NCBI RefSeq assembly: GCF_036850765.1
Contig: NC_089495.1
Span: forward strand, 119,931,033 to 119,995,032
Direction of reading: 5' to 3'
Length of the DNA: 64,000 bases
From: Saccopteryx bilineata
Taxonomy: Eukaryota; Chordata; Mammalia; Chiroptera; Emballonuridae
A program made the translations under genes and the position numbers. Below the pieces are notes generated by a model. That model saw only the letters and a list, made by a program, of their open reading frames with translations, did not search any database and had not been told where the DNA came from. Positions 1 to 52,884 of the stretch are shown one piece after another. How positions within the stretch are numbered: the first letter of the stretch is position 1; each line of letters opens with the position of its first letter.

Positions 1-846
1 GGAGAAAGAGATGCCGACCCTGGAGCTGGAGCAAGCACCAGAGAAGGAGGCTAACCAGGTTCGCGAGATTCGCTTGGAAATGAAGCAGCCACTGCAGAAG
101 GAATCAGAGGTTCGTGAGTTGCAGCTTGCCCTGGAGATTTCCCAGAGCCAGCTGCTGCAGGAGGCCGGGGCTGAGGCCAGGGCTGACACCACAAAGCCTA
201 TGGAGCAGAAGGCGGAAGCAGCCTGGGGCTCGAGCCCGGCAGTGAGAGCTGGTGTTTTCAGTTCCTCTTTGGAAGATGAAGAGAATCGGGCTAGAGTTGC
301 GATCTACAGTCTCCAGAAGGTGAGAGCCCAGCTGCAAGAAGTACTTACTATGCCCCTGATAGGTCTGCAATTTTGGGACATAAGGGTGAATGCCATCATG
401 CTCTCCAGAGCAGAGATGGAAATGCTAACTGCCATTGCCACATGCTCCTCTTTGGGACAGTGTAAGACCTTCCAGGACAGCAGGGATGAAGGGGGGTGGC
501 TGAGGCCCCATGTGTGTGGACTGATTTCCTGGACTACGACCAGAGTAGGCACTGGCTCCTTTGTTGGATGGACTTACGGATTTTGGACAATGTGAAATAG
601 CCTGATGGGGGTGGGGGACAGCTTTGCTGGAAGCACTCCCCTGCCCCGGTAAGCTTTTCCCATGGCTAGAAAGAAGGCCAAGGACATTTTGCACTTTTGG
701 CAAAGTGCTCAGAGACTGGTGAAGTGTACCTTATAATTGTTGAAATTGTATGATTTGTCATGCTTTTGTAATTGGTATAATGTGCCTAATTTCCTTGTGC
801 AGGAATACTTGTGCTTTAGATTGTGAAGCAAGCAAAAGGGGTGGAA
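1..846 (+). mobile_element. Internal 3' region of an endogenous retrovirus-like (LTR) element
   Basis: This stretch ends in a purine-rich tract (about 829-846, AAGCAAAAGGGGTGGAA) directly followed by TG of an LTR, which is the polypurine-tract/3'-LTR junction of LTR retrotransposons. The 5' part of the element lies outside the window. The body contains one open reading frame (11-595) and then about 250 bases with no coding signal. I see no recognisable protease, reverse transcriptase, integrase or envelope motif, so the element is either non-autonomous or only its 3' end is shown. The family is not identified; an ERVL/MaLR-type element is possible. Confidence 0.6.
11..595 (+). other. Unidentified coiled-coil-like ORF in the LTR-element interior (194 aa)
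   Basis: The first 75 residues are rich in Glu, Gln, Leu, Lys and Ala with leucines spaced as in a coiled coil (LELEQAPEKEANQVREI, LQLALEISQSQLLQE). A second charged stretch lies at residues 88-113 (LEDEENRARVAIYSLQKVRA). The C-terminal third is hydrophobic and Cys/Trp-rich and may be fortuitous. The first ATG follows GGAGAAAGAG, but the same frame is open upstream to the window edge, so the true start may be outside. It may be a gag-like remnant or a host coiled-coil fragment picked up by the element. I do not recognise the family. Confidence 0.35.
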
Positions 847-5539: not shown

Positions 5540-5910
5540 GGCCCTGGCTGGTTGGCTCAGTGGTAGAGCATTGGCCTGGCATGCAGGAGTCCCGGGTTCG
5601 ATTCCCAGCCAGGGCACACAGAAGCGCCCATCTGCTTCTCCACCGCTCCCCCCTCCTTCCTCTCTGTCTCTCTCTTCCCTTCCCGCAGCTGAGGCTCTAT
5701 TGGAGCAAAGTTGGCCCGGGCGCTGAGGATGGCTCCATGGCCCCTGCCTCAGGCACTAGAATGACTCTGGTTGCAACAGAGCAACGGCCCAGATGGGAGA
5801 GCATCGCCCCCTAGTGGGCATGCCACGTGGATCCTGGTTGGGCGCATGCGAGAGTCTGTTTGACTGCCTCCCTGTTTCCAACTTCGGAAAAATACAAAAA
5901 AAAAAAAAAA
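5540..5910 (+). repeat. tRNA-derived SINE, Rhin-1-like
   Basis: The head GGCCCTGGCTGGTTGGCTCA has a Pol III A box (TGGCTCAGTGG) and B box (GGTTCGATTCC). A body with CAGAAGCGCCCATCTGCTTC and (CT)n follows, then a long poly(A). It is flanked by the 14-bp target duplication AAGTTGCCTCTTTT at 5526-5539 and 5911-5924. The SINE resembles the Rhin-1 family of rhinolophoid bats. Confidence 0.92.
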
Positions 5911-5924
5911 AAGTTGCCTCTTTT

Positions 5925-6962: not shown

Positions 6963-7426
6963 CCATATCCTATTACATCACACCTGCCTTCTGAGTCTAC
7001 ACTGTAACACTCAAAGATAGTAGTAGGTATCCTAATAGGGAACTTTGTTATATGAAACAAGTTATATACTTTTATATGCACACAGCACCTAAGGAGCCTA
7101 GAATAATTAAAATGGTAAGTTACAGAGATAGGCTAATGTATTCCTGAGAATTATTCTGATTCACCCTTACCAATTGTAATTCCTTGAAGATCATTCAGAG
7201 AGCTTATTACTGCAGTCTGGTATTTCATTTGGACAAGGAGCAGCATAGCTTTCCCCAAATCATTTAATGGACTGCCCTTGTGAAGCACTGAGTTTGGGCT
7301 CTCTTGTTAACTCCTTACAGATAAATGTTATGTTGTGTTTGATTGTCTTTTTCATGGTAACCCCATCTTCCTGAGTCCCAGGGAATGCTGGTTACATAAT
7401 ACTATTTTGTCAAAAAAGAAATAGTA

Positions 7427-7830
7427 GGCCCTGGCCGGTTGGCTCAGCGGTAGAGCGTCGGCCTGGCGTGTGGGGGACCCGGGTTCGATTCCCGGCCAGG
7501 GCACATAGGAGAAGCGCCCATTTGCTTCTCCACCCCCCCCCCCCTCCTTCCTCTCTGTCTCTTCCCTTCCCGCAGCCAAGGCTCCATTGAAGTAAAGATG
7601 GCCCGGGCGCTGGGGATGACTCCTTGGCCTCTGCCCCAGGCGCTAGAGTGGCTCTGGTCGCAACAGAGCGACGCCCTGGAGGGGCAGAGCATCGCCCCCT
7701 GGTGGGCAGAGCGTCGCCCCAGTGGGCGTGCCGGGTGGATCCCGGTCAGGCGCATGCGGGAGTCTGTCTGACTGTCTCTCCCCGTTTCCAGCTTCAGAAA
7801 AATACAAAAAAAAAAAAAAAAAAGAAAAAA
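7427..7830 (+). repeat. tRNA-derived SINE, Rhin-1-like (young copy)
   Basis: The head reads GGCCCTGGCCGGTTGGCTCA with intact A and B boxes, and the body and 3' sequence are close to consensus (TGTCTGACTGTCTCTCCCCG before the tail). AAATAGTA occurs on both sides (7419-7426 and about 7833-7840), part of a longer A-rich target duplication. Low divergence suggests recent insertion. Confidence 0.92.
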
Positions 7831-8031
7831 AAAAATAGTAATGACTTGTGATCACTAAAACCCTGGAAGTAGAATACTGAGCATTTATGAAAACCTCACA
7901 ATCTCAGTCACAGACCAGTTCCACTTTAGTGCTAACAATCACATAAATCTTTGGAGCCATTTCTTAGATGGTAGACTTCAGATTTTGTAAGCTTAAAATT
8001 TTTAAAAGACATGTCACAACAAAATAAAAAA

Positions 8032-10267: not shown

Positions 10268-10388
10268 TATGTCTCCACTTCAGTTTCCCTGGGGTGTCTC
10301 ATCAACACTCTATGTCACAGTCCCAGGAAGTATGTCACAAAGCTAATGCCCAGCCATCAAAGTGCCAACAAGCAGCTCATTTTATTTT

Positions 10389-10404
10389 CCTCTTCTTCTT
10401 TTTT
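10389..10404. repeat. Target-site duplication, left copy, of the intact L1
   Basis: CCTCTTCTTCTTTTTT, identical to 18243-18258. It directly abuts the poly(T), which is the complement of the L1 poly(A). Confidence 0.92.
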
Positions 10405-10658
10405 TTTTTTTTTTTAATTTTATAATTTTATTTTTTTAATGGGGTGACATCAATAAATCAGGATACATATATTCAAAGATAACAAGTCCAGGTTATCTTG
10501 TCGTTCAATTATGTTGCATACCCACCACCCAAAGTCAGATTGTCCTCTGTCACCTTCTATCTTGTTTTCTTTGTGCCCCTCCCACCCCCTATCCCTCTCC
10601 CATTCCCCCCTCCCCCCCGTAACCACCACACTCTTATCAATGTCTCTTAGTTTCACTA

Positions 10659-13600
10659 TTATGTCCCACCTACGTATGGAATAATACAGTTCCTGTTTTT
10701 TTCTGATTTACTTATTTCGCTTCGTATCATGTTATCAAGATCCCACCATTTTGCTGTAAATGTTCCGATGTCATCATTTCTTATGGCTGAGTAGTATTCC
10801 ATAGTGTATATGTGCCACATCTTCTTTATCCAGTCATCTATTGATGGGCTTTTTGGTTGTTTCCATGTCCTGGCCACTGTGAACAATGCTGCAATAAACA
10901 TGGGGCTGCATGTGTCTTTACGTATCAATGTTTCTGAGTTTTGGGGATATATACCCAGTAGAGGGATTGCTGGGTCATAAGGTAGTTCTATTTTCAGTTT
11001 TTTGAGGAACCACCATACTTTCTTCCATAATGGTTGTACTACTTTACATTCCCACCAACAGTGTATGAGGGTTCCTTTTTCTCCACAGCCTCTCCAACAT
11101 TTGCTATTACCTGACTTGCTAATAACAGCTAATCGAACAGGTGTGAGGTGGTATCTCATTGCCGTTTTGATTTGCATTTCTCTAATAGCTAAAGAAGATG
11201 AGCATCTTTTCATATATCTGTTGGCCATTTGTATTTCTTCCTGGGAGAAGTGTCTATTCATATCCTCTTCCCATTTTTTTATTGGATTGTTTGTTTGTTT
11301 GTTGTTGAGTTTTATGAGTTCTTTGTATATTTTGGATATTAGGCCCTTATCTGAGCTGTTGTTTGAAAATATCATTTCCCATTTAGTTGGCTTTCTGTTT
11401 ATTTTGTTATCAGTTTCCCTTGCTGAGCAAAAACTTCTTAGTCTGATGTAGTCCCATTCATTAATTTTTGCCTTCACTTCTCTTGCCATTGGAGTCAAAT
11501 TCATAAAATGCTCTTTAAAACCCAGGTCCATGAGTTGAGTACCTATGTCTTCTTCTATGTACTTAATTGTTTCAGGTCTTATGTTTAGATCTTTGATCCA
11601 TTTTGAGTTAATTTTTGTACAGGGGGAGAGACTGTAGTCCAGTTTCATTCTTTTGCATGTGGCTTTCCAGTTTTCCCAGCACCATTTATTGAAGAGGCTT
11701 TCTTTTCTCCATTGTGTGTTGTTGGCCCCTTTATCAAAAATTATTTGACTATATATATGTGGTTTTATTTCTGGACTTTCTATTCTGTTCCATTGGTCTG
11801 AGTGTCTATTTTTCTGCCAATACCATGCTGTTTTGATTGTCGTGGCCCTATAATAGAGTTTGAAGTCAGGTATTGTTATGCCCCCAGCTTCATTCTTTTT
11901 CTTTAGGATTGCTTTGGCTATTCGGGGTTTTTTATAGTTCCATATAAATCTGATGATTTTTTGCTCTATTTCTTTAAAAAATGTCATTGGAATTTTGATG
12001 GGAATTGCATTAAATTTGTATATTGCTTTGGGTAATATAGCCATCTTGATTATATTTATTCTTCCTAGCCAAGAACAAGGTATATTCTTCCATCTCATTA
12101 TATCTTTTTCGATTTCCCTTAACAATGGTTTATAGTTTTCATTATATAAGTCCTTTACATTCTTTGTTATGTTTATTCCTAAGTATTTTATTTTTTTTGT
12201 TGCAATCGTGAAGGGGATTATTCTTTTGAGTTCCTTCTCAGTTGTTTCATTGTTGGCATACAGAAAGGCTATTGACTTCTGTATGTTAATTTTGTATCCT
12301 GCGACCTTACTGTATTGGCTTATTGTTTCTAGTAGTCTTTTTGTGGATTCTTTGGGGTTTTCGATGTATAGGATCATATCATCTGCAAAAAGTGATACCT
12401 TTACTTCTTCTTTTCCGATATGGATGCCTTTTATTTCTTTGTCTTGTCTGATTGCTCTGGCTAGAACCTCTAGTACCACATTAAATAAGAGTGGAGACAG
12501 TGGACAACCCTGTCTTGTTCCTGATTTAAGGGGGAAAGCCTTCAGTTTAGTGCCATTTAATATGATGTTAGCTGATGGTTTATCATATATGGCCTTTATC
12601 ATGTTGAGATATTTTCCTTCTATACCCATTTTGTTGAGAGTCTTAAACATAAAATTGTGTTGTATTTTATCAAAAGCCTTTTCTGCGTCTATTGATAAGA
12701 TCATGTGGTTTTTGTTCTTTGTTTTGTTGATATGGTGTATTACATTAACCGTTTTACGTATGTTGAACCATCCTTGAGATTCTGGGATGAATCCCACTTG
12801 ATCATGATGTATTATTTTTTTAATATGTTGTTGTATTCGATTTGCTAGTATTTTGTTTAGTATTTTAGCATCTGTATTCATTAGAGATATTGGTCTGTAG
12901 TTTTCTTTTTTTGTGCCATCCTTGCCTGGTTTTGGTATGAGGGTTATGTTGGCCTCATAAAATGTGTTTGGAAGTATTGCTTCTTCTTCAATTTTTTGGA
13001 AGACTTTGAGTAGAATAGGAACCAAGTCTTCTTTGAATGTTTGATAAAATTCGCTGGTATAGCCGTCAGGGCCTGGACTTTTATTTTTGGGGAGGTTTTT
13101 AATGGTTTTTTCTATTTCTTCTCTACTGATAGGTCTGTTTAGGCTTTCTGCTTCTTCTTGACTCAGTCTAGGAAGGTTGTATTGTTCTAGGAATTTATCC
13201 ATTTCTTCTAGGTTGTTGAATTTAGTGGCATAAAGTTTTTCATAGTATTCTACAATAATTCTTTGTATATCTACGGTGTCCGTGGTGATTTCTCCTCTTT
13301 CATTTTGGATTTTGTTTATATGAGTTCTTTCTCTTTTTTCCTTGGTAAGTCTTGCCAAGGGTTTGTCAATTTTGTTGATCTTTTCAAAGAACCAGCTCCT
13401 TGTTCTATTAATTTTTTCTATAGTTTTTCTGTTCTCTAATTCATTTATTTCTGCTCTGATTTTTATTATTTCCTTTCTTCGGCTGGTTTTGGGTTTTCTT
13501 TGTTCTTCTTTTTCTAGTTCCTTAAGGTGTGAAGTTAAGTGGTTCACTTGGGCTCTCTCTTGTTTGTTCATATATGCCTGAAGCGATATGAACTTCCCTC

Positions 13601-14486
13601 TTATCACTGCTTTTGCTGCATCCCATAGATTCTGATATGTCGTATTGTCATTTTCATTAGTCTGTATATATCTTTTGATCTCTGCACTTATTTCTTCTTT
13701 GACCCATTCATTTTTTAAAAGTATGTTGTTTAGTTTCCACATTTTTGTGGGATTTTTTTCCTCTTTTTTGCAGTTGAATTCTAGTTTCAAGGCTTTATGA
13801 TCAGAAAATATGCTTGGTACAACTTCAATTTTTCTGAATTTGCTGATGTTGTTTTTGTGGCCCAACATATGGTCAATTCTTGAGAATGATCCATGTACAC
13901 TGGAGAAAAATGTATACTCAGTCACTTTGGGATGAAATGTCCTGTAGATGTCTATCATATCCAGGTGCTCTAGTGTTTTGTTTAAGGCCACTATGTCTTT
14001 GTTGATTCTCTGTTTGGATGACCGATCTAGAGCCGTCAGCGGTGTATTGAGGTCTCCAAGTATGATTGTTTTTTTGTCAGTTTTTGTTTTAAGATCAATA
14101 AGTAGCTGTCTTATATATTTTGGTGCTCCTTGGTTTGGTGCATATATATTAAGAATTGTTATGTCTTCTTGATTCAGTGTCCCCTTAGCCATTATGAAAT
14201 GACCATTTTTGTCTCTAAGTACTTTTCCTGTCTTGTAGTCAGCATTATCCGATATGAGTATTGCTACACCTGCTTTTTTTTGGATGTTATTTGCTTGGAG
14301 TATTGTTTTCCAGCCTTTCACTTTGAATTTGTTTTCATCCTTGTTACTTAGATGAGTTTCCTGTAGGCAGCATACAGTTGGATTTTCTTTTTTAATCCAT
14401 TCTGCTACTCTGTGCCTTTTTATTGGTGAGTTTAATCCATTTACATTTAGTGTAATTATTGATACTTGTGAGTTCCCTATTGCCAT
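10659..14486 (-). CDS. L1 ORF2 protein: endonuclease and reverse transcriptase (1275 aa, intact)
   Basis: The enzyme nicks target DNA and primes reverse transcription of L1 and SINE RNAs there. The 1275-aa length equals that of human L1 ORF2p. The N-terminal apurinic-type endonuclease shows Asn14 in LNVNGLNS, Glu43 in LQETHLS, GDLNTPL and the SDHKAL histidine motif. The reverse transcriptase has [29 protein letters not shown] and the catalytic FADD in [14 protein letters not shown]. The C-terminal zinc-knuckle-like motif is [18 protein letters not shown]. No stop or frameshift is present, so activity is plausible but untested. An in-frame ATG follows a 326-base spacer after ORF1. Confidence 0.97.
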
Positions 14487-14716
14487 TTTATATCTTGCTT
14501 TCTGTAAGTTTTGTGTCTTGTTTGATCCTTCTCTTTCGTTTTTCTATCTTTTGTTTTTATTTGGTTGTATTCCATACATCTTTCCTCTGTTGCTATCTTT
14601 TTTATCTCATGTGCTTCTGTGGTGGTTTTTTCAATGGTGGTTACCTTTGAGTAATGAAAAGGGTCCCTACCCTGTTCATTGTAGCGAACTATTTTGTGAG
14701 TACTTTTGCACTCCAT
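14477..14716 (-). other. Spacer ORF between L1 ORF1 and ORF2 (79 aa)
   Basis: A Lys/Glu/Thr-rich open frame fills most of the inter-ORF spacer. It terminates at TAG (14477-14479), seven bases inside ORF2, whose ATG is at 14484-14486, so the two frames overlap by 10 bases. I know of no domain for it. It could be a chance frame, or it could serve termination-reinitiation into ORF2. Confidence 0.35.
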
Positions 14717-14812
14717 CGTCCTTTGCTACTGTTAATCTCCGTCTTCTCCCCCTCTTTCTTTTTGTTGTTGTCACAGTTTAAATTTGGTTTTATTGTGTTC
14801 TTCTTGGAGCTT

Positions 14813-15808
14813 TTACTTGTGGCTCTGTTTTTTTTTGTTCTTTGTATCTGATTGGAGAACCCCCTTTAGTAATTCCTGGAGTGGGGGTTTTCTGATGATA
14901 AATTCCCTCATCTTTTCTGTATCTGTGAATGTTTTTATTTCTCCTTCATATTTGAAGGATAGCTTTGATGGGTATAGTATTCGTGGCTGAAAGTTCCTCT
15001 CTTTCAGGACTTTAAATATTGGGGTCCACTCTCTTCTAGCTTGTAGAGTTTCTGCTGAGAAATCTGATGATAATCTAATGGGCCTTCCTTTATATGTTGT
15101 ATTCTTCTTTTCCCTGGCTGCCTTGAGAATTTTTTCTTTGCTGTTGGTTTGTGTCAATTTCATTATGATATGCCTTGGAGTAGGTTTGTTGGGGTTAAGA
15201 AAACTTGGAGTTCTGTTTGCTTCTTGAACTTGAGGCTTTAGTTCTTTCCACAGGCTTGGGAAGTTCTCATCAATTATTTGTTTAAGTATGTTCTCCATTC
15301 CATTTTCTCTCTCTTCTCCCTCTGATATACCTATTATTCTTATGTTATTCTTTTTGATGGAGTCAGATAATTCTTGTAGGGCTATCTCATTTTTTTTAAT
15401 TTTTGAGTCTCTTTCTTCTTCTCTCTGTTGTGCCTCAAGTTGCTTGTCTTCTATTTCACTAATCCTCTCTTCTATCTGACCTGTTCTATTAGCTAAGCTT
15501 GTTACTTCGTTTTTCAGCTCGTGAATTGAGTTTTTCATCTCTGTTTGATTTGTTTTTATAGTTTCAATTTCCTTGGACATATATTCTTTGTGTTCATGGA
15601 GTTGTTTTCTGAGCTCCCTATATTGCCTTTCTGTGTTTTCTTGTATATCTCGGAGGATTTTTAGGATTTCTATCTTGAATTCTCTGTCATTTAGCTCCAA
15701 GGTTTCCAATATATTAAATTTTTTCTCCATAGATTTTTCCTCATCTAGCTGTGTTACCTCTCTTTCTTTTGTATCCATGATATTCGATTTTCTCTTCCTT
15801 AATGGCAT
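14813..15808 (-). CDS. L1 ORF1 protein, RNA-binding chaperone (331 aa, intact)
   Basis: ORF1p trimers coat L1 RNA in the ribonucleoprotein. Residues about 30-150 form a Glu/Lys-rich coiled coil (ISEIEDKQLEAQQREEERD). An RRM-like segment follows (NIRIIGISEGEE to IIDENFPSLW), then the C-terminal domain with the conserved LKAAREKKNTTYKGRPIRL and QARREW. The length is close to that of human ORF1p (338 aa). The frame is open throughout. Confidence 0.96.
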   Translation of the reverse strand: MPLRKRKSNIMDTKEREVTQLDEEKSMEKKFNILETLELNDREFKIEILKILRDIQENTERQYRELRKQLHEHKEYMSKEIETIKTNQTEMKNSIHELKNEVTSLANRTGQIEERISEIEDKQLEAQQREEERDSKIKKNEIALQELSDSIKKNNIRIIGISEGEERENGMENILKQIIDENFPSLWKELKPQVQEANRTPSFLNPNKPTPRHIIMKLTQTNSKEKILKAAREKKNTTYKGRPIRLSSDFSAETLQARREWTPIFKVLKERNFQPRILYPSKLSFKYEGEIKTFTDTEKMREFIIRKPPLQELLKGVLQSDTKNKKKQSHK

Positions 15809-18242
15809 CTGAGGGTGGTTTTGTTGATAGTATTATTGAGATTTAATAAAGAATAAAAAGTTAAAAAAAAATAAAAAAATAACAAATCGAAAAGAGTTGT
15901 TTTTTTTTAAAAAAAATTAATAATGAAATAAAGAAAAATAAAATCAAATAAAAATTTTTTAAAAAAGGAAATTATTCCCCCCCTCTTTTTTTCCTCTCCT
16001 CTCCTCTCCCCTCTTTCTTGAGAAAATCTTGTGGTGGACTGTGAGTTATAACAAACAATGCCTGTGATGGAGGGCCTGAATTGGGGAAAAGTAATAAAGG
16101 GGCAAAAAAGAGAGAAAGAAAAAAGAAAAAAAAAAAAAAAAAAAAGGAAAAAAAAAAAGAGCGTATGGACCCACAAAAAGCAAATAAGGAAAAAAGTTGG
16201 GTCAAGAATAAAATGATTTGCTTTTAGGTGTTGGTTTTCTAAGAGTTATGATGAGAGGAATAAGAGGAAAATGGAAAAATGGGGGGACAAATTAAAAACT
16301 TACTATTGTATTTAGTGGAACAAGAACTAGATAATATGGAGAGCCAGGGATGGGAGCACTGCTAGTGAGTTAAAAAGGTGAAGTAAAAACCCCCCAAAAT
16401 GCCACAAACATAGGTTTGAGTCCCAGATAAGATAATTTGTTTGTTATTGAGGTTTGAATGAGAGGAGATGTAAAGGAGAAAGGAAGAAACTAATATAGAG
16501 GGAGAAAAGAAAGAGAGAGAGAGAAAAAAAGAGGGAACCACTAAAAGAAGAAAAAAAAAAGGAGAGAGAGAGAGAGAGTTAAGGGTTTTGGAGTGCAACC
16601 CTCATAGAGAGAAAGGAAGAGAAGAGAAATGATAATGGGAGATGTAACACTTATGGGTAGTGTAGTTCAAGGAGAGGAGAGAGTAAGACCGGTAGAGAGT
16701 TAATCGGCCAAATTGGAGGAGGAAAAAAAAGTCTCAAGAATGAAGATAAGAGAAACAAACGAACAAATATAATAAAATGGGATAGGTTATAAAGTCTGCA
16801 GATTATTCTTGATTTTGAGAGGTTATCTTCTTGCTTTTTCTTTTCTCTCCCTCTTCCTGGTCGGTGACTCTGTACCCCGGGTTCTGCCCCTTTGGCACGC
16901 TCAGGTAGAGGTTTGCAGTTGATAAGTCTCTATGGCAATGTCATGTATTGTGCTTTATTCTCGTTGGGAGTCGAGGCTCATTAGCATTTATAGGCTCCGA
17001 CAGTGAGAGAGTCCGTGTTCCTGGAGCCTTTCTCCTAGTCTTTCCTTCCTCAATTAGTAGCCTGATAGTCCAGGTATGGGGTTGCTGCTGCCTCTGCCTG
17101 GATAGTAAGAGGCTCAAATTGCTGGCAACTCCCCACTCTATTTCCACTCAGCACAGGGCTCTGGGTAAGGCTCAGTCAGTCAGAGCTGCTAGCATAATCA
17201 GGCGGGCTTTCCGCCCACTCGAAGACCTCTGGCTCTGCCACTCTATCCGGTAACACAAGCGGGCGCCCACTTCCGGGGCGCTTGGAGGAAACTCTCACTC
17301 ACTGTCTGCAACCAGGATATCCGGCCAGCAGTCTCACGCTCTGAGTGAAACCCCCAACCGCAGGGAAAAGTTGCAGCGTTGGAATTGAGTCTCGCTCCGT
17401 CCCCGTGTGCGGCTTTTGCAAGGCGCTGGGGCGGCCTGAGATTCCGCTTTGGCCCACACAAAGGCCCCTGACTCTGCCCCTCTCTGCGATAACACGGGCG
17501 CACACTGCCGAGGCACTCGGAGGAATCGCTCACTCCTTATCTGCGCGCGCAAACCAGGATATGAGGCCGGCTGCGGTTCCCTCTGAGTGAAACAGCCTCC
17601 AGCACGGAAAATCTCCACCGTTGGGATTAGTTCTCACTCCCTCCCGTGCGTGGCTTTCCCAGGGCGCTGGGGCTGCCCAGAGACTCTGCCCTCAGCCCAC
17701 AGAAAGGCCTCTGACCCTGCCTCTCCGTGGGGCAACACGGGCACCCACTTCCGCGGCTTAGGAAGAAATCTCTCTTCCACTAACTGCGCACCGACCAGGA
17801 GACCGGGTAAAATGGCTGCTCCGCTTGTCTTTCTTTGTTTGGGTTTGGCGCGAGTGTTAGCTTGTATTGCCCGGGTTGCCACAGGATCAGATTTTCCTCG
17901 GCTAGGATCTCTGAGCCACAGCCTGGTTCGGCCGTTTTTGCTGCGGTGGCCTGGATCTATTCACCCCCTTTGCCCGCCTCAGTTTCTATATTCACAGTTA
18001 CCAGAGAAAGCCGCCCTGTTTAGGTTAGTGAGGAAGGCGGAGCATTTCTTACTCCCTATTTCCTTCGGGGTTTGGTTATATATTTAGCCAATTTTTCACT
18101 CAATCATACCTTTGGGTGTATTGCGAAGAATCTGGAAGCTCCAAGTATAGGTTTTTCTGTTTCTGGTTGAAGATCTTGTTGAGTTTTGGGGGAGATTTAT
18201 CGGTATCGCTTCCTACTCCGCCATTACTCTGACGTCATCTCC
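15809..18242 (-). promoter_or_regulatory. L1 5' UTR/internal promoter region (about 2.4 kb)
   Basis: It splits into a purine-rich part on the + strand (about 15850-16800, pyrimidine-rich in the L1 sense) and a CpG-rich part (16800-18242). The CpG-rich part contains tandem units of about 240 bp (17251-17489, 17490-17732, partial from 17733). A unique end (17811-18242) completes the 5' edge of the element. Mammalian L1s start transcription from internal promoters in this position; the exact start was not determined. Confidence 0.7.
17251..17810 (-). repeat. Monomer-like tandem repeats in the L1 5' UTR
   Basis: The units begin TAACACAAGCGGGCGCCCAC (17251), TAACACGGGCGCACACTGCC (17490) and CAACACGGGCACCCACTTCC (17733). 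Each carries a shared order of blocks: a ...GGAGGAA(A/T)C...CTCACT block, ACCAGGATAT, CTCTGAGTGAAAC, GGCGCTGGGG and CTGCC. Part of a further unit precedes 17251. Spacing is 239 and 243 bp. The arrangement resembles the promoter monomers of mouse L1, but the sequence is different. Confidence 0.85.
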
Positions 18243-18258
18243 CCTCTTCTTCTTTTTT
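18243..18258. repeat. Target-site duplication, right copy, of the intact L1
   Basis: CCTCTTCTTCTTTTTT, identical to 10389-10404. It is followed by AAAAG, giving the endonuclease consensus. Confidence 0.92.
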
Positions 18259-19508
18259 AAAAGAATCCCATTCCCTCAGAGGGATAACAGTCCAGACCAC
18301 ACGGACAGCTAGGGAAAGCCTGAGAACACCAGAGCCGCAGGTTCTCCACAGCTGCTGCAAGGCAACCCCGAGTACAAGATAAAACTGCACATAGCGCGGG
18401 AGTGGGTTTGCAGGTCTTGGGTACACAGTCGCCAGCCCAGAAAACTGGTAAAATACTCTCTACACTACACAACAGGCTCAACAGACACACAGAGTGTTAT
18501 ACTCACTTTCCAGAGGATCCCTGTGCTCCTGATGAACCTAGCTGGCATGTTTGAACTGACATTGAAGTCCTTTAAGATGTGTACTAGATCTGGTCCAGTA
18601 TACTTGAGGACAAAAAACTATTAGCAGAAGGTGTTGATTAATTCTCTGAGGAAACTTTACTACCTTGTTCAAAACATTGCCTCCCTTGACATTTCTGTAA
18701 AGAGAGAAACCCTGTCAAACTCTTGTGTTATCATTACAAAAGGTCTCATATGTTCTTATAGATGGATTCTGTTTGTTCTTTTCCTTTTTACCAGTGAAAG
18801 GGAAATAAAATAGGCATACAACTCGCCCTGGGCCTAGTGCCCCAGCTTCTGAATGAACTCAGCAGGAATCAGGAAACAGCAAACATGATAGAAGAGACCA
18901 GCAGGTCCCCACTCTCCCCGCTTTGAGCTGTGCTCCTAATCTTGATGAATAGTTGTTCTACCAGCACTAACCTCCTTTCTCTCATGTCTGCACCCACCCC
19001 AACTCCTTGATTCTCCTTTATGTCTCTAAATATTATATCCTCACTGTCTTCCACCCCTGAACTGCCACCCCCCATCCAAACGAGCTTCGTATCTTCTCCA
19101 GTTTCCTACAGTGGCTGTCCGACTAATCTCTCTGCCTGCAGTTTGCCTACCCCTCTGCCTGTCTGTCTTCCAGACCCCTTACATGCATATTTTATCACAT
19201 CCTTTCCCTTGTTAAAGTTGAGCACCCCTCTCACCTGATAACTTGCAGGATAAGGTTCCAAGGCTTAGCACACACGGTCCTGCGTGACCTGGTCCTTGCC
19301 TTATATTTTCCGCTGTTCCTCCTGCCCCATCTCCTCGCCCTGAGCAGCGGTCCACACTGGCCACACCGCTGCAGTCCCCACACAGGTGATGCTGCACACC
19401 CACCCATCTGGGTTCTAGCTCAGTGCTGCTGCTTCCGCTCGGGAAGTTCCCCCACTCCACCCCTCATACTTCATCTCCCTCACTCATATCAGGACCTCAA
19501 AATTCAAT
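18259..19508. other. Non-coding intronic-type sequence
   Basis: Pyrimidine-rich stretches (18900-19200) and moderately GC-rich sequence (19240-19460) give short open frames on both strands, none with a recognisable family. No gene is supported. Confidence 0.5.
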
Positions 19509-25987: not shown

Positions 25988-25999
25988 AAGAAATATATA

Positions 26000-26386
26000 G
26001 GCCCTGGCCGGCTGGCTCAGCGGCAGAGCGTCGGCCTAGCGTGCGGAGGACCCGGGCTCGATTCCCGGCCAGGGCACACAGGAGAAGCGCCCATTTGCTT
26101 CTCCACCCCTCCACCGCGCTTTCCTCTCTGTCTCTCTCTTCCCCTCCTGCAGCCAAGGCTCCATTGGAGCAAAGATGGCCCGGGCGCTGGGGATGGCTCT
26201 ATGGCCTCTGCCTCAGGCGCTAGAGTGGCTCTGGTCGCAATATGGCGACGCCCAGGATGGGCAGAGCATCGCCCCCTGGTGGGCGTGCTGGGTGGATCCC
26301 GGTTGGGCGCATGCGGGAGTCTGTCTGACTGTCTCTCCCCGTTTCCAGCTTCAGAAAAATGAAAAGAAAAAAAAAAAAGAAAAAAA
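26000..26386 (+). repeat. tRNA-derived SINE, Rhin-1-like (young)
   Basis: The head GGCCCTGGCCGGCTGGCTCA has A and B boxes, a near-consensus body and an A-rich tail. AAGAAATATATAG occurs at the left junction (25988-26000) and after the tail (26387-26399). The boundary G may belong to either. Confidence 0.92.
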
Positions 26387-26664
26387 AAGAAATATATAGT
26401 GAAGGAGGTAAAATTTTTTCATAAATTTATCCATAGGTAAATAACCAGTTACCAGCTTAACATATATTTTTTCTTATTTTTCTATGTTGTAAAAATATAC
26501 ACATAGATTTTAATAAAATGGATCATTTGATGTATACCATTTTATAACTACCATGTAAAAGTTTTTTTCTTTACAAAATTGTACAAAAAATAACAATACA
26601 ACATAATATCTGCTCTATCTAAAATGAACCAATGTTACTATTTTATAGTCGCTTCAGATTTATT

Positions 26665-36689: not shown

Positions 36690-37660
36690 AAATAGGAAGA
36701 CAGAGAAATGCAATCCAAATGTATCAAGAAGAGAAATCCCCAGAAAAAGAACTGTATGAGAAGGAAATAACCAAGGTACCATATGCAAAGTTTAAAATAA
36801 TGATTGTTAAAATGCTCAAGGATCTTAGAAAAACAATGGATGGACATAATGAGCACATAAATAAAGAGATAGCGAGCATCAAAAGGACATTGAAATCATA
36901 AAAAAGAATCAATCAGAAATGACAAATACAATGTCAGAAATGAAGACTACACCAGAAGGAATCAAAAGCAGGCTGGATGAAGCAGAGGATCAAATAAGCG
37001 ATTTAAAGGACAAAATAAATGAAAGCACAGAATCAGAACATCAAAAATAAAAGAGGCTCAATAAGTCTGAGGGAACTCTAAGAGAACTCTGTGAGAACAT
37101 GAAGAGAAATAACATTCACATCATAGGGGTTCCTGAAGAAGAAGAGAAAGAACAAGGGATAGAGAACCTGATTGAAGAAATCATAGCAAAAATTTCACTA
37201 AATTGATGAAGGAAAAGTCACACAAGTTCAAGAAGCACAGAGAGTGCCATTAAAGAAGAACCCAAGGAGGCCTACATCAAGACACTTCATAATTAAAATA
37301 CCAAAGTTAAGAGATAAAGAAAGAATACTAAAAGCTGCAAGAGAAAAGCAGTCAATCACCTACAAAGGAGCCCCCATAAGGATGACATCCGACTTTTCAA
37401 CAGAAACACTTGAGACCAGAAGGGAATAGCAAGAAATATTCAAAGTAATACAAAACAGGAGCCTACAACCAAGACTTCTTTATCCAGCAAGGCTATCATT
37501 TAAAATTGAAGGAGAAATAAAAAGCTTCCAAGACCCCAAAAAATAAAAACAAACAAACAAACAAAAAAACCCTTAAGGAATTTATTACAACCAAACCAAT
37601 GCTGCTGTAAACAGAACAAAGCGGAGGGGGAGACCTAGATAAAAAGGACTGCAGATTTAA
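36690..37660 (+). pseudogene. Degraded L1 ORF1
   Basis: The ORF1 frame is recognisable in pieces: KFKIMIVKMLKDLRKTMDGH, PEEEEKEQG-like sequence near 37130, RHFIIKIPKLRDKERILKAA and YKGAPIRMTSDFSTETLETR. The expected initiator codon is ATA, a stop replaces the Trp of the ARREW motif near 37430, and frames shift around 36900 and 37200. Confidence 0.85.
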
Positions 37661-38309
37661 AGAATAAAATGGCAATAAACAACTACATATCAAAAATAAC
37701 CTTAACCTTAAATAGATTAAATGCTACAATCAAAAGACATAGGGTAACTGCATGGATAAGAAAACAGGACCTGTACATATGCTGCCTACAAGAGACCCAC
37801 CTTAAAACAAAAGACACAAATAGACTGAAAGTGAAGGGAAGGAAAAAATATTTCATGCAAATGGAAATGAAATAAAAGCTGGAGTAGCAATACTTATATC
37901 TGACAAAATAGACTTTAAAACAAAGGCTATAGTAAGAGATAAAGTAGGTCACTACATAATGATAAAGGGAGCAATCCAACAGGAAGATATATCATTATAA
38001 ATAACTATGTACCTAATATAGAAACACCTAAATATATAAAGCAGATTTTGATGGACATAAAGGGCAAGATCAACAATACTATAATGGTAGAGAATTTTAA
38101 TACCCCACTAAAATAATGGATAGATCCTCAAGAAGGAAAAATAACAAAAAAACAGCAGCTTAAAGGACACACTAAATCAACTGGATTTAATAAGTATTTT
38201 CAAAACCTTTCACTCCAAAGCAGCAGAATATATATTTTTTTCAAGTGCTCATGGTACATTCTCTAGGATAGACCACATATTAGGACACAAAACGAGTCTC
38301 AATAAATTT

Positions 38310-38649
38310 ATTTATTTTTTATTCTTTTAGGGACAGAGAGAGTCAAAGAGAAAGGGATAGATAGGGACAGACAGACAGGAATGGAGAGAGATGAGAAGCA
38401 TCAATCATCATTTTCTTGTTGCAACACCTTAGTTGTTCATTGATTGCTTTCTCATATGTGCCTTGACTGCAGGCCTTCAGCAGACCGAGTAACCCCTTGC
38501 TCGAGCCAGCGACCTTGGGTCCAAGTTGGAGAGCTTTTTGTTCAAGCCAGATGAGCCCGCACTCAAGTTGGCGACCTCGGGGTCTCGAACCTAGGTCCTT
38601 CCACATCCTAGTCCAATGCTCTATCCACTGCACCACCACCTGGTCAGGC
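38310..38649 (-). repeat. tRNA-derived SINE, long type, inside L1 ORF2
   Basis: It runs from TTATTTTTTATTC to ACCACCTGGTCAGGC. The 16-base flanks GAGTCTCAATAAATTT and AAGTCTGAATAAATTT differ at two positions and mark the target duplication. Confidence 0.9.
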
Positions 38650-40683
38650 AAGTCTGAATAAATTTAAGAAGATTGAAATCATATCAAGCATCGACTCTGA
38701 TCACAATGGCATGAAACTAGAAATCAACTACAATAGAAAAACTGAAAAACTTTCAAACACTTGGAAACTAAATAGCATGTTATTCAATAACAAATGGGTT
38801 AACAATGAGATCAAGGAAGAAATAAAAAATTTTCTTGAAACTAATGAAAATAAACAAACAACTCAAAATTTATGGGACACCGCAAAAGCAGTCTTGAGAT
38901 GAAGTTTATAGCATTACAAGCATACCTTAAGAAGCAAGAAAAAGCTCATATATACAACTTAACCCGGCACCTAAAAGAAATGGAAAAAGAACAGCAAGTA
39001 AATCCCAGAGGAAGTAGAAGGAAAGAAATAATAAAGATCAGTATGGAAATAAATGACATAGAAGTTAAAAAAAAACAATACAGAAGATAAATGAAACCAA
39101 AAGCTGCTTCTTTGAAAAGGTAAACAAGATTGATGAACTTTTAACCAGACTCACAAAAAAAAGAGGACTCAAATAAATAAAATTAAAAATGAGAGTAGAG
39201 AAGTAACAAACTGACACAGCAGAAATACAAAGGACTGTAAGAAAATACTATGAAGAACTGTATGCCAAAAAATTAGACAACCTAGGTGAAATGGACAAAT
39301 TCCTTGAAACATATAATCTTTCAAAAATCAATCTGGAAGAATTAGAAAACCGAAACAGACTGATTACAACAAAGGAGATTAAAATAGTTATGAAAAAAAC
39401 TCCCAACAAACAAAAGTCCTGAGCCAGATGGCTTCACAGGCGAAGGAGAACTACCAAATATTCTATCAAATATTGAAAGGAGAAATAACTCTATCCTTCT
39501 CAAGCTATTTCAAAAAATTCAAGAGAAGGAAAGACTTCCAAGCTCCTTTTGTGAGGCAAGCATTATCCTCATTCCAAAACCAGGCAAAGACACCACAAAG
39601 AAAGAAAGCTATAGGCCTATATCCCTGATGAACTTAGATGCTAAAATTCTCAAAAAAATATTAGCAAACTGGATCCAACAATACATGAAAAAAATTATAC
39701 ATCATGATCAAGAAGGATTTATTCTGGGGAGGCAAGGCTGGTACAATATTTGCAAATCAATCAATGTGATTCATCACAAAAACAAAAGGAAAGAGAAAAA
39801 CCACATGATAATTTCAATAGATGCAGAAAAAGCATTTGATAAAATCCAGCACCCATTCATGTTCAAAACTCTCAGCAAAATGGGAATACAGGGAACATAC
39901 CTCAACATGATAAAGGCCATCTATGACAAACCCACAGCCAACATCATACTCAATGGGCAAAAATTAAAAGCAATCCCCCTAAGATCAGGAACAAGGCAGA
40001 GGGGAGGGGTGCCCCCTTTCACCACTCTTATTCAACATAGTTCTGGAAGTCCTAGCCACAGCAATCAGACAAGAAGAAGAAATAAAAGGCATCCAAATCG
40101 GAAAAGAAGAAGTAAAACTATCATTATTTGCAGATGGTATGATATTGTATATAGAAAACCCTAAAGTCTCAGTCAGAAAACTACTAGACCTGATAAATGA
40201 ATGGCAGGATATAAAATTAATACTCAGAAATCAGAGGCATTTTTATACACTGACAATGAACTGTCAGAAAGAGAAATTAAGGAAGCAATCCCCTTCACCA
40301 TTGCAACCAAAAAAGTAAAGTACCTAGTAATAAATTTAACCAGGGAGATTAAAGGCTTGTACTCAGAAAATTATAAAACATTGATTAAAGAAATCAGAGA
40401 AGGTACAAATAAGTGGAAGCATATACTGTGCTCATGGTTAGGAAGAATAAACATCATTAAAATGTCTATATTACCCAAAGCAATTTATTAATTCAATGCA
40501 ATACCGATTAAAATACCAATGTCTTACTTCAAAGATATAGAATACATATTCCAAAAATGTATATGGAACCAAAAAAGAACACGAATAGCCTCAGCAATCT
40601 TGAAAAAGAAGAATAAAGTGGGAGATATCACACTTCCTGATATCAAGTTATACTATAAGGCCATTGTACTAAAAACAGCCTGG

Positions 40684-41080
40684 GAACCTGGCCGGTTGGC
40701 TCTGCGGTAGAGCGTCGGCCTGGCGTGCGGGGGACCCGGGTTCGATTCCTGGCCAGGGCACATAGGAGAAGCGCCCATTTGCTTCTCCACCCCCCACCCC
40801 CTCCTTCCTCTCTGTCTCTCTCTTCCCCTCCCGCAGCCAAGGCTCCATTGGAGCAAAGATGGCCCGGGCGCTGGAGATGGCTCCTTGGCCTCTGCCCCAG
40901 GCTCTAGAGTGGCTCTGGGCGCGGCAGAGCGACGCCCGGAGGGGCAGAGCATTGCCTCCTGGTGGGCAGAGCGTCGCCCCTGGTGGGCGTGCCGGGTGGA
41001 TCCCGGTTGGGCGCATGCGGGAGTCTGTCTGACTGTCTCTCCCCGTTTCCAGCTTCAGAAAGAAAAAAAAGAAAAAAAAA
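40684..41080 (+). repeat. tRNA-derived SINE, Rhin-1-like (young), inside L1 ORF2
   Basis: Near-consensus copy with both Pol III boxes, flanked by AAAAACAGCCTGG (40671-40683) and AAAAACAGCCTGG ending at 41092. It splits the L1 ORF2 reading AIVLKTAW. Confidence 0.93.
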
Positions 41081-42189
41081 AAAACAGCCTGGTACTGGCA
41101 TAAGAACAGGCATATAGATCAATGGAACAGAACTGAGAACCCAGAAATAAACCCACACTTTTATGGACAACTATTTGACAAAGGAGGTAGAGTATACATT
41201 GGAGTAAAGACAGCCTCTTCAACAAATAGTGTTGGGAAAATTAGACAACTACCTGCAAAAAAATGAAACTAGACCACCAACTTACACCATTCACAAAAAT
41301 AAACTCAAAATGGATAAAAGACTTAAATGTAAGCCGTAAAACCATAAGCATCTTAGAAGATAACATAGGCAGTAAGCTCTCTGACATCTCTCACAGCAAT
41401 ATATTTGCCGATTTATCTCCACGGGCAAGTGAAATAAAAGACAGGATAAACAAATATATTTAACAATATGTCTGATTAGGGGTTAATAACCAAAATTTAT
41501 AAAGAACTTGTAAAACTCAATACCAGGAAGACAAACAATCCAATCAAAAATGGGCAAAAGAAATGAATAAACACTTCTCCAAAGAGGATATACAGATGGC
41601 CAATAGGCATATGAAAAAATGCTCAACATCACTAATCATTAGAGAAATGCAAATTAAAACCACAATGAGATATCATCTCACACCAGTCAGAATGGCGCTC
41701 ATCAACAAAACAACAGAATAAGTACTGGCAAGGATGTGGAGAAAAGGGAACCCTCCTGCACTGCTGGTGGAAATGCAGACTGGTGCAGCCACTGTGGAAA
41801 ACAGTATGGAGATTCCTGAAAAAATTAAAAATCGAACTGCTTTTGACCCAGCTATCTCACTTTTAGGAATATACCCCAAGAATACCATAGCACTGTTTGA
41901 AAAGAAGAAATGCACTCCCATGTTTATGGCAGCATTGTTCACAATAGTGAAGATCTGGAAACAGCCCAAGTGTCCCGTCAGTGGACAAGTGGATTAAAAA
42001 GCTTTGGTACATATACACTATGGAATACTACTCAGCCATAAGAAATGATGACATCAGATCATTTACAACAACATGGATGGACCTTGATAACATTATACTG
42101 AGCAAAATAAGTAAATCAGAAAAAACTAAGAACTATATGATTCCATACATAGGTGGGACATAAAAATGAGACTCAAAGACATGGACAAG

Positions 42190-42245
42190 AGTGTGGGGGT
42201 TATGGGGAGGGGGGGAGGGAGGGGGTTGAGGGAGGGGAGGGGCAC
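42190..42245 (+). other. G-rich tract in the L1 3' UTR (G-quadruplex candidate)
   Basis: Many runs of 3-7 G separated by 1-4 bases lie in the L1 sense strand. The intact L1 has the equivalent tract on its sense strand (complement of 10567-10620). Confidence 0.7.
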
Positions 42246-42397
42246 AAAGAAAACCAGTTAGAAGGTGACGGAAGACAAATGGACTTTGGGTGATGGGAAT
42301 GCAGCATAATCAAATGTCAAAATAACCTAGAGATGTTTTCTCTGAACATATGTACCCTGATTTATCAATATCACCCCATTAAAATTAATTTAAAAAA

Positions 42398-45052
42398 TTG
42401 GGAAAGTGGAAATACAGGGAACATACTTCAACATGATAAAGGCCATCTATGACAAACCCACAGCCAACATCATACTCAATGGGAAAAAATGAAAAGCAAT
42501 CCCCTGAAGATCAGAAACTAGGCTGGGGTGCCCCCTTTCACCACTCTTATTCAACGCAGTTCTGGAAGTCCTAGCCACAGGAATCAGACAAGAAGAAGAA
42601 ATAAAAGGCATCAAAATTGGAAAAGAAGTAAAACTATCATTATTTGCTGATGACATGATACTGTATATAGAAAATCCTAAAGTCTCAGTAAAAAAACTAC
42701 TGGACCTGAAAAATGAATTCAGCAAGGTGGCAGAATATAAAATTAATATTTAGAAATCAGAGGCATTTTTATATACCAACAGTGAACTGTCTGAAAGAGA
42801 AATTAAGAAAACAATCCCCTTCACTATTGCAATCAAAAAATAAATAAATTTATCCAAGGAGTAAATTTATCCAAGGAGATAAAATGCTTGTACTTGGAAA
42901 ATTATGAAACATTGATAAAAGAAATCAAGGAAGATACCAACAAGTGGAAATATATATCATGTTCATAGATAGGAAGAATAAACATTATTAAAGTGTCTAT
43001 ATTACCCAAAGCAATCTATAAATTCAATGCAATTTCTATTCAGATACCAACTGCATACTTCAAAGATATACAGCAAACATTCCAAAAATTTATATGGGCC
43101 CTGGCCGGTTGACTCAGTGGTAGAGCGTCGGCCTGGCATTTGGGGATCCCGGGTTTGATTCCCGGCCAGAGCACACAGGAGAATCGCCCATCTGCTTCTC
43201 CACCCCTCCTCCTCTCCTTCCTCTCTGTCTCTCTCTTCCCCTCCTGCAGCCAAGGCTCCATTGAAGCAAAGTTGGACCGGGCGCTGAGGATGGCTCTGTG
43301 GCCTCTGCCTCAGGCGCTAGAATGGCTCTGGTTGCAGCAGAGCGACGTCCCAGATGGGCAGAGCATTGCCCCCTGGTGAGTGTGTCAGGTAGATCCCAGT
43401 CAGGCACATGCGGGAGTCTGTCTGACTGCCTCCCCATTTCCAACTTCAGGAAAGAAAAAAAAAATTTATATGAAACTTAAAAAGATCATGAATAGCCTCA
43501 GCAATCTTGAAAAAGAATAAATTGGGTGGTATCACACTTCCTGTTATCAATTTGTACTACAAGGCCATTGTACTCAAAATAGCTTGGTACTGGCATAAGA
43601 ACAGGTATATAGATCAGTGGAACAGAACAGAGAACCCAGAAATAAACCCAGACCTTCTTGGACAATTGATATTTGACAAAGGAGGTAAGAGCATACAATG
43701 GAGTAAAGACAGTCTCTTTAACAGATGGTGTTGGAAAATTTGACAGCTACCTACAAAAAAAATGAAACTAGACCAACTTATACCATTCACAAAAAGAAAC
43801 TCAAAATGTATGAAAGACTTAAATGTAAGTCATGAAATCATAGTCATCTTGGAAGAAAACATAGGCAGTAAGCTCTCCGACATCTCTCACAGCAATATAT
43901 TTGCTGATTAATATCCAGGGGCAAGTGAAATAAAGGACAGGATGAACAAATGGGACTATATCAAACTAAAAAGCTTTTGCACAGCTAAAGACAGTATGAA
44001 CAAAATAAAAAGACAGCCCACTCACTGGGAGAACATATTCGCTGATATATCCGATAAGGTCTTGATAACCTAAACTTATCAAACTCAACAACAGGAAGAC
44101 AAACAATCCAATTTAAAAATGGTCAAAAGATCTGAATAGACACTTTTCCAAAGAGGACATACAGATGGCCAATAGGCAGATGAAAAAAATGTTCAACATC
44201 ACTAATCATTAGAGAAATGCAAATTAAAACCACAATGAGATACCACCTCACACCTGTCAGAATGGCACTCATCAACAAACAACACAGAATAAGTGCTGGC
44301 GAGAATGTGGAGAAAAGGAAACCCTCCTGCACTGCTGGTAGGAATGCAAACTGGTGCAGCCACTGCGGAAAACAGTATGGAGATTTCTCAAAAAATTAAA
44401 AATGAAACTGCCTTTGACCCAGCAATCCCACTTTTAAGAATATATCCTAAGAACACCAAATCACTGATTCAAAAGGAGAAATGCACCCCCATGTTTATTG
44501 CAGCATTGTTTACAATAGCCAAGATCTGGAAACTCCCAATTGTCCATCAGTGGACGAGTGGATTAAAAAGCTGTGGTTCATATACACAATGAAATACTAC
44601 GCAGCAGTGAAAAAGAAGAAAATTTTACCTTTTGCAACAACACGGATGGACCTAGAGACTATTATGCTAAGTGAAATAAGCCAGGCAGAGAAAAAAAAAT
44701 ATCATATGACCTCACTCATTTGAGGAATCTAATGAAAAGTGTGAACTGAGGAATGAAATAGAAGCAGAGGCAGGGTCAAAGGGACCAGAGGCAAAGTGCG
44801 GTCAGAAGGAAAGAAGATGGGATCAGAGAAGGGAAAGAGATTAGTAAAATTATATATACATAACACAGCGTTATAGAGAGCAAGAAAGCACATCTTGGAG
44901 GGAAAGGGGAAAGGCGTTGGGGGGGTAAGGGAGTGTCAAGGGTAGCACAGGGGGTTGGGAGGAGATATATTCAGTGGGACACTTGAATCTATGTAAATAC
45001 AATAAATTAAAATCAATAAAATTTAAAAAATTAAAGAAATAAAATAATAAAT
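42398..45052 (+). mobile_element. 5'-truncated L1 (downstream unit of the dimer)
   Basis: It begins inside ORF2 (GTGGAAATACAGGGAACATA), at the point matching 39876 of the upstream unit, and runs through the ORF2 end (WIKKLWFIYTMKYYAAVKKK), a 3' UTR and CTATGTAAATACAATAAATT to an A-rich tail. Its 3' UTR matches the family of the L1 at 51853-59357. It lacks the 7-nt insertion of its neighbour. A Rhin-1-like SINE interrupts it at 43097-43459. No target duplication lies at its left edge; the only one brackets the whole array. Confidence 0.85.
43097..43459 (+). repeat. tRNA-derived SINE, Rhin-1-like, inside truncated L1
   Basis: Head GGCCCTGGCCGGTTGACTCA, with the duplication AAAAATTTATATG at 43084-43096 and 43460-43472. 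Confidence 0.93.
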
Positions 45053-49934: not shown

Positions 49935-50312
49935 TACCTTGGCTGGTTGGCTCAGCAGTAGAGCGTTGGCCCAGCATATGGAAGTCCCGGGTTTGATTCT
50001 CAGTCAGGGCACACAGGAGAAGCGCCCATCTGCTTCTCCACCCCTCCCCCTCTCCTTTCTCTCTGTCTCTCTCTTCCCCTCCGGCAGCCAAGGCTCAATT
50101 GGAGCAAAGTTGGCCCCGGCCGCTGAGGACAGCTCCATGGCCTCCACCTCAGGTGCTAGAATGGCTCTGACTGTAACAGAGCAACACCCCATATAGGCAG
50201 AACATCACTCCTGGTGGTCGTGCTGGGTGGATCCCAGTCGGGCACATGCAGGAGTTTGTCTGTCTTCCTGCTTCTCACTTTGGAAAAATATAAATAAATT
50301 AAATAAACAAAC
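49935..50312 (+). repeat. tRNA-derived SINE, Rhin-1-like
   Basis: The head begins near TGTACCTTGGCTGGTTGGCT with A and B boxes, and the body and tail follow the family. AATAAACAAGAATG at the left and AATAAGAATG after the tail mark the duplication. Confidence 0.88.
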
Positions 50313-52836: not shown

Positions 52837-52852
52837 TAAAGTATTTTTCAAG

Positions 52853-52884
<32 letters not shown>

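What the first reader, a model, noticed from the sequence alone, without database searches (positions are those of the whole stretch)
10389..18258. Recently inserted, apparently retrotransposition-competent L1 in FREM2 intronic sequence
Seen: both ORFs open (331 and 1275 aa), catalytic motifs present (Glu43-type endonuclease motif, FADD, C-terminal CCHC), complete 5' and 3' ends, no nested repeats, a perfect 16-bp duplication and a TTTTTT/AAAA nick site. Established: such features mark young, possibly active L1 source elements. Inference: the insertion may be polymorphic in the species and could be a live source of L1 and SINE mobilisation.
Basis: partly seen in the sequence, partly recalled or inferred. 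Interest (0 to 1): 0.75.

Follow-up and report, generated by a model that had tools for sequence, protein, structure and literature searches.

The report
Young intact L1 with long spacer
This is a recently inserted, apparently intact copy of a common mammalian jumping gene (LINE-1) that has left thousands of similar sequences in this animal's genome; it is an ordinary kind of element, but its unusually long gap between its two genes makes an old puzzle about such elements testable.

Summary
Window 10389-18258 carries a full-length LINE-1 on the minus strand with a 16-bp target duplication, a TTTTTT/AAAA site, open ORF1 (331 aa) and ORF2 (1275 aa), and the canonical catalytic residues. It lies antisense between Calx-beta exons (FRAS/FREM-type gene). 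It belongs to a very large young family: 5,455 genomic sites match its 5' end and 16,785 its 3' end (60-mers, up to 3 mismatches). Five whole copies differ by 0.67-0.90%. Four of ten copies examined have both ORFs intact. Three private changes in 2511 sites suggest insertion about 0.5 My ago (0.1-1.5). Mobility, transcription and polymorphism could not be tested; the one assembly held has no empty allele. Additions: a 2.4-kb 5' UTR with degenerate 240-bp repeats; two further L1 lineages in the same genome with open ORF2 frames; and a 326-bp ORF1-ORF2 spacer, against a 63-bp median in 31 mammals (PMC4072516), which calls the persistence of long spacers hard to reconcile. The spacer carries a 79-codon frame ending on the ORF2 start: a lead only. 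Ordinary kind, worth knowing.

The parts
10389..10404 (.). target site duplication, 3' side of the element
   Evidence: identical 16 bases at 18243-18258
10405..10437 (-). A-rich tail (reads T on + strand)
   Evidence: sequence; tails follow the same 3' end in 7 other copies (L039-L042; L050-L052)
10438..10658 (-). 3' UTR, about 220 bp
   Evidence: between ORF2 stop and tail; a 60-mer of it has 16,785 genomic sites
10659..14486 (-). ORF2: AP-type endonuclease, reverse transcriptase, C-terminal CCHC; 1275 aa
14487..14812 (-). intergenic spacer (IGR), 326 bp, 51% A
14477..14716 (-). 79-codon frame in the spacer (called ORFi here); its stop TAG lies at +8 to +10 of ORF2
   Evidence: an open frame only, no proof of translation
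14813..15808 (-). ORF1p, 331 aa: trimerization region, RRM-like and C-terminal domains
15809..18242 (-). 5' UTR, 2434 bp (presumed internal promoter); GC 54% in 16801-18242, 33% in 15809-16800
   Evidence: 5' end shared with relatives; GC
17206..17800 (-). degenerate tandem units of about 240 bp (about 2.5 units, about 71% alike, GC 61%)
18218..18224 (-). ATGGCGG, YY1-like site near the 5' end (motif recalled)
   Evidence: sequence
18230..18237 (.). TGACGTCA, CRE-like palindrome (motif recalled)
   Evidence: sequence
17812..18087 (+). antisense 91-aa frame in the 5' UTR; tested as ORF0-like and not supported
18243..18258 (.). target site duplication, 5' side; nick TTTTTT/AAAA at 18258/18259

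Best explanation
A full-length LINE-1 (L1) retrotransposon of a large, very recently expanding lineage ('A', my label). It inserted by target-primed reverse transcription: its endonuclease nicked the + strand at TTTTTT/AAAA, the transcript's A-tail annealed and was copied, leaving a 16-bp duplication. It encodes an apparently intact ORF1p and ORF2p, so it is a candidate source of new L1 copies and, in trans, of A-tailed SINEs. The structure and the family's recency are shown; the insertion steps follow from established L1 biology; that this copy is transcribed and mobile is inferred. ORF2 is presumably translated by termination-reinitiation across a 326-bp spacer.
For: Both ORFs open with the canonical catalytic residues. 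TSD, nick site and A-tail; TSDs of 11-16 bp in 7 of 8 copies scored by the script, the eighth (L015) scoring 0 there although a repeat is visible by eye beside 10 extra junction bases. The 40 scored genomic hits to the 5' UTR, of 3905 candidates, are 99% identical (39) or the window itself. Pairwise 0.67-0.90% among five whole copies. 5,455 5'-end and 16,785 3'-end sites. Of 17 exact 5'-end sites listed on C1 below 50.27 Mb, 11 have an exact 3' end 7.7-8.1 kb away (read by eye). Both ORFs intact in 4 of 10 copies examined and ORF2 in 6 of 10. Private substitutions 3 of 2511 sites against a mean of 5.7 in 30 copies. Window-private ORF2 changes 7 synonymous, 3 not, P=0.004 under neutrality, not corrected for 9 copies tested, as if part of them were inherited from a selected source lineage. 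ORF2 between lineages A and B: 137 of 223 differences at third positions.
Against: No expression or mobility data. Three private non-synonymous ORF2 changes (K51E, N139K, Q331K) could lower activity. 6 of the 9 other copies have an altered or broken ORF1 or ORF2, or lack ORF2. The copies fetched whole or nearly whole were mostly chosen for likeness to this one.
Confidence: 0.88

Rival explanations
1. Intact in sequence but dead: a recent copy whose private changes (ORF2 K51E, N139K, Q331K) or silenced promoter leave it immobile.
For: Three private non-synonymous changes in ORF2; in humans a few copies do most of the jumping (PMC4072516, Discussion).
Against: Canonical catalytic residues intact; synonymous excess among private ORF2 changes.
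Confidence: 0.4
2. An older insertion kept similar to its relatives by gene conversion.
For: Conversion among L1 copies is known in general (recalled). Not tested directly here.
Against: The 16-bp TSD, which lies outside any converted stretch, is perfect; this is weak evidence because it is short. The three private sites (element positions 296, 339, 1686) are too few to judge.
Confidence: 0.04
3. Assembly artefact (misplaced repeat).
For: Young L1s are hard to assemble (general knowledge).
Against: Matching TSDs join element and flanks at both ends.
Confidence: 0.02

Closest known systems
Human L1 (ORF2p 8sxt, 8uw3; ORF1p 2yko)
   Same: Same two-ORF order; ORF2p aligns over residues 4-1274; ORF1p aligns over residues 103-330 of 331; A-tail, TSD, TT/AA-type site.
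   Different: IGR 326 bp (human 63 bp recalled); the 2.4-kb 5' UTR was not compared with the human one here; its 91-aa antisense frame shows no sign of being an ORF0.
Megabat L1 lineage 1 (IGR 445-481 bp) and lineage 2 (26-38 bp), PMC4072516 (abstract and sections 8, 10, 11 read, passages elsewhere)
   Same: This genome also holds long-IGR lineages (A 326, B 325 bp) beside a short-IGR one (C, about 54-69 bp in two copies), with open ORF2 frames in all three.
   Different: Extinct about 24 My ago in megabats by that paper, very young here. Window ORF2 lacks the two megabat-private residues L418V and V671T. Sequence kinship of the spacers was not testable here.
Mouse L1Md monomeric promoters (PMC6454616: passages read)
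   Same: Tandem units of about 200-240 bp in the 5' UTR.
   Different: Here the units are internal and about 71% alike, and the stretch matching element positions 1-2431 is 2409-2450 bp in 30 copies; mouse monomer number varies between copies (abstract of that paper).

Membership tests
LINE-1 (L1 clade non-LTR retrotransposon) | ORF1 with trimerization, RRM-like and C-terminal dsRBD-like domains | tested here: met
   (PF02994, PF17490 over cut-off; PF17489 at 22.0 bits against a cut-off of 22.2)
LINE-1 (L1 clade non-LTR retrotransposon) | ORF2 with AP-like endonuclease, RT and CCHC C-terminus | tested here: met
LINE-1 (L1 clade non-LTR retrotransposon) | A-tail, variable TSD, TT/AA-type insertion site | tested here: met
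LINE-1 (L1 clade non-LTR retrotransposon) | 5' UTR with internal promoter activity | not testable with these tools
   2.4-kb 5' UTR present; no expression data
Retrotransposition-competent ('live') L1 | both ORFs intact, no lesion in catalytic residues | tested here: met
Retrotransposition-competent ('live') L1 | mobility in a cell assay or de novo insertion | not testable with these tools
   none
Polymorphic insertion | empty allele in the population | tested here: inconclusive
   joined-flank 61-mer with up to 3 mismatches: 0 sites in the one assembly held
Megabat L1 lineage 1 | long IGR | tested here: met
   326 bp against 445-481 bp (PMC4072516)
Megabat L1 lineage 1 | private ORF2 residues 418V and 671T | tested here: not met
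   418L, 671V
ORF0-type antisense gene (primate L1) | antisense frame under coding constraint | tested here: not met
   differing sites at codon positions 1/2/3: 7/9/6 against L053 and 7/7/6 among 30 copies; frame broken in L053
Mouse-type monomeric promoter | variable number of near-identical 5'-terminal monomers | tested here: not met

The most novel reading that the evidence does not exclude
The long spacer of this L1 lineage is kept because it carries a translated bridging frame. A 79-codon frame (ORFi) starts at spacer position 97 and ends with TAG at +8 to +10 of ORF2, so a ribosome finishing ORFi lands on the ORF2 start and reinitiates. Frame and stop position would be selected while the peptide is free to change. 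That would explain why long spacers persist in some mammalian L1s although a megabat one was inhibitory in HeLa cells.
Probability: 0.15. Interest if true: 0.65.

Novelty: new member of a known kind. Interest (0 to 1): 0.4.

Why it matters
Active L1s are well studied in human and mouse and much less elsewhere (general knowledge; PMC4072516 says the same). This genome offers thousands of young 5'-complete copies of a long-spacer L1, with intact ones among those examined, so the question raised in PMC4072516 (how a long, inhibitory spacer persists) can be studied in a recently active family and not only in a reconstruction of an extinct one. The coexistence of three L1 lineages with open ORF2 frames would also let one test how L1 families share one host.

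Tried and rejected
Antisense 91-aa frame as an ORF0 analogue: 91 aa in 28 of 30 young copies (89 aa in L028; none of 70 aa or more in L036), but no codon-position bias, and broken in the older copy L053; rejected.

ORFi as a conserved protein: A against B shows 36 differences, at codon positions 1/2/3 17/9/10, about 4 synonymous and 27 non-synonymous; rejected as a conserved peptide, kept only as a frame. Random substitution would leave the frame open in 22% of simulations, so its survival alone is weak evidence. An out-of-frame ORF of at least 79 codons running into ORF2 occurs in 0.38% (A) and 0.18% (B) of 5000 dinucleotide shuffles, but A and B are related, so these are not independent, and the test was chosen after seeing the frame. 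The spacer folds better than shuffles (z -2.83, 1 of 100), so an RNA structure or IRES is not excluded.

L047 as a copy with a swapped promoter: it has no A-type 5' UTR before element position 934 and a SINE-like sequence adjoins; read as a plain 5' truncation and rejected. Rfam: 0 matches in 10300-18500 at gathering scores. ORF2 and ORF1 protein searches of the genome, a CSPG-domain search (PF16184) for an upstream FREM exon, a spacer DNA search, a B-lineage 5'-end count and counts of the two spacer types did not complete. (script) failed and was redone; one search failed part-way and was continued as 55; the ORF1 start of L014 was not found, so that row is void.

Full report
What is there. 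The minus strand of 10389-18258 carries a complete L1: 5' UTR 15809-18242, ORF1 14813-15808, spacer 14487-14812, ORF2 10659-14486, 3' UTR to about 10438, A-tail, and a 16-bp target duplication on both sides. ORF2 aligns with solved human ORF2p over residues 4-1274 (8sxt) and ORF1 with human ORF1p over residues 103-330 (2yko). The canonical endonuclease and RT residues are present, human numbering recalled. The departures GDLN and VGFIPESQ seen against human are not among the changes private to this copy in a 9-copy ORF2 alignment, so they belong to the lineage and are not lesions of this copy.

Where it sits. Five window frames on the + strand match the Calx-beta family, three of them at or above its curated cut-off (frames starting 31677, 34060, 47118, 48823, 61210; cut-off reached by 34060, 47118 and 48823); a sixth frame tried (47965) did not match. 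A further Calx-beta exon lies 30 kb upstream of the window on the same strand (C6:119900739). The element, at C6:119941421-119949290, is therefore most likely intronic and antisense to that gene. FREM2 is a plausible name (recalled domain make-up) but no call tested it, and no call named the host.

How young. A search with 1443 bases of its 5' UTR scored 40 of 3905 candidates: the window itself and 39 others, all at 99% over nearly the whole query. Five whole copies (window plus L039-L042) differ pairwise by 0.67-0.90%. Over 2511 sites of the first 2943 (positions 2000-2431, mostly low complexity, left out), the window has 3 substitutions private to it among 30 copies; the mean is 5.7, the range 2-13. 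At 2.366e-9 per site per year (rate used for bats in PMC4436864, passages read, where the unit is printed per my) this is about 0.5 My, Poisson 95% 0.1-1.5 My. The mean pairwise distance of the 30 copies is 1.05%. The 29 comparison copies were the best hits to this one, not a random sample.

How many. A 60-mer of the 5' end has 5,455 sites and a 60-mer of the 3' UTR 16,785, each with up to 3 mismatches; the reversed control patterns have 0. Of 17 exact 5' sites listed on C1 below 50.27 Mb, 11 have an exact 3' site at 7.7-8.1 kb (read by eye), so most of these are near full length. Of the ten A copies looked at, both ORFs are intact in four (window, L041, L042, L045/L004). L023/L051 and L014/L052 keep ORF2 but have extra A's in an A-run near the ORF1 end. 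L039, L040 and L015/L050 have a broken ORF2, and ORF1 is also frame-shifted in L039 and L040. L037/L049 lacks most of ORF2 and its ORF1 is broken too. In one search, which scored 150 of 72,847 candidates from all lineages, 34 of the 150 RT hits lie in a frame of at least 1275 codons (counted by eye). PMC10620060 (start of abstract, in the listing) gives about 2,800 intact L1s in mouse; a number for this genome could not be obtained.

Selection signature. Ten ORF2 substitutions are private to the window among nine copies: 7 synonymous, 3 not, against an expected synonymous share of 0.25 (P = 0.004, one of nine copies tested). The other copies: L042 6 of 10 (P = 0.02), L052 5 of 9 (P = 0.05), L041 2 of 8, L051 2 of 5, L004 1 of 3, and the broken ones L039 4 of 12, L040 2 of 10, L050 0 of 3. 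The simplest reading is that several of the window's differences arose in an active source lineage before insertion; the evidence is moderate.

Three lineages. Lineage B (five copies: L044/L002, L046/L006, L063/L003, L065/L059, L068) has ORF2 94% like A in the three measured (L002, L003, L006). In the two B copies scanned in 300-base bins, ORFs are 86-97% alike, element positions about 120-1040 of the 5' UTR are unrelated and the rest of the 5' UTR is 65-77% alike (L059 agrees). The promoter-proximal block was probably exchanged since they split. Lineage C (L001/L043, L007, L054-L056, L060, L061, L066; L048 is 88.6% like L043) has 74% ORF2 identity to A (L001, L007) and no match to the A 5' UTR (L007 and L066 not tested for that; grouping). 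L057 is a weaker match and was left out. All three lineages include copies with ORF2 frames of at least 1275 codons. B copies L044 and L046 are 96.5% alike; C copies L055 and L056 98.7% over 1.36 kb. PMC4072516 (abstract) reports two or more simultaneously active families in megabats before their L1 extinction.

The spacer. The IGR is 326 bp in A and 325 bp in B, and about 54-69 bp in the C-type copies L066 and L048; in C copy L043 the ORF1 frame overlaps ORF2. PMC4072516 (section 8) gives a median of 63 bp and a range of 18-580 in 31 mammals, 445-481 bp in megabat lineage 1 and 26-38 bp in lineage 2, so a long spacer is known in kind. [quoted passage not shown] In lineage A there is such a frame: ORFi, 79 codons, from spacer position 97 to TAG at +8 to +10 of ORF2. 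It reads 79 codons in 14 of 15 A copies by script; the fifteenth, L041, was missed by the search string and is open by eye in the alignment. The older A relative L062 has a 15-nt in-frame deletion and still reads to the same stop, although its ORF2 start codon reads GTG. ORFi is open in 4 of 5 B copies and broken in L065 by an 88-nt duplication. The A/B one-base indel lies upstream of it. The three C-type copies have no separate spacer frame of this kind, and L071 was dropped because no ORF2 start was found. The peptide is not conserved, so the case rests on frame and stop position only; it is a lead.

The 5' UTR. It starts with CRE-like and YY1-like motifs (recalled) and holds about 2.5 degenerate 240-bp units; GC is 54% in the distal 1.4 kb and 33% next to ORF1. 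The antisense 91-aa frame shows no sign of coding constraint.

Verdict. The element is a new member of a known kind. Mobility, transcription and polymorphism remain to be tested at the bench. The point of wider interest is a long-spacer L1 lineage that was active very recently and still has intact copies. Searches of the held library gave, in their listings, no paper whose title or abstract start describes this family: searches (bats, LINE-1, UTR, monomers, tandem; 3 papers; Emballonuridae, LINE-1, transposable elements; 2 papers), and the bat-related listings (20 shown of 24 and of 27). The library is partial.

Noticed in passing
L037 / L049 (C5:172075450 onward): An A-lineage copy with a complete 5' end that stops near element position 3825 without a tail yet shows a target-site-like repeat by eye: looks like internal priming at an A-rich stretch.
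   Followed up: partly
L014, L023, L040 near the ORF1 3' end: An A-run at the end of ORF1 varies by one or two bases between copies and shifts the ORF1 C-terminus; a possible slippage hotspot.
   Followed up: partly
L015 5' junction (C8:67506746): Ten extra bases between the target duplication and the L1 5' end; by eye the copy sits inside ORF1 of another L1.
   Followed up: no
window 7401-7860, 40687-41084, 62292-62674, 25988-26388, 43097-43464, 5540-5912, 49924-50217: tRNA-like SINE of about 400 bp with an A-tail; the longer copies are 79-93% identical to the 7401 copy.
   Followed up: partly
window 2-592 +: 197-codon open frame rich in glutamate with no Pfam match; possibly a processed pseudogene fragment.
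   Followed up: partly
window 36883-44695 and 52127-57718: Two older L1 remnants, 64-73% identical to the young element and broken into pieces.
   Followed up: no
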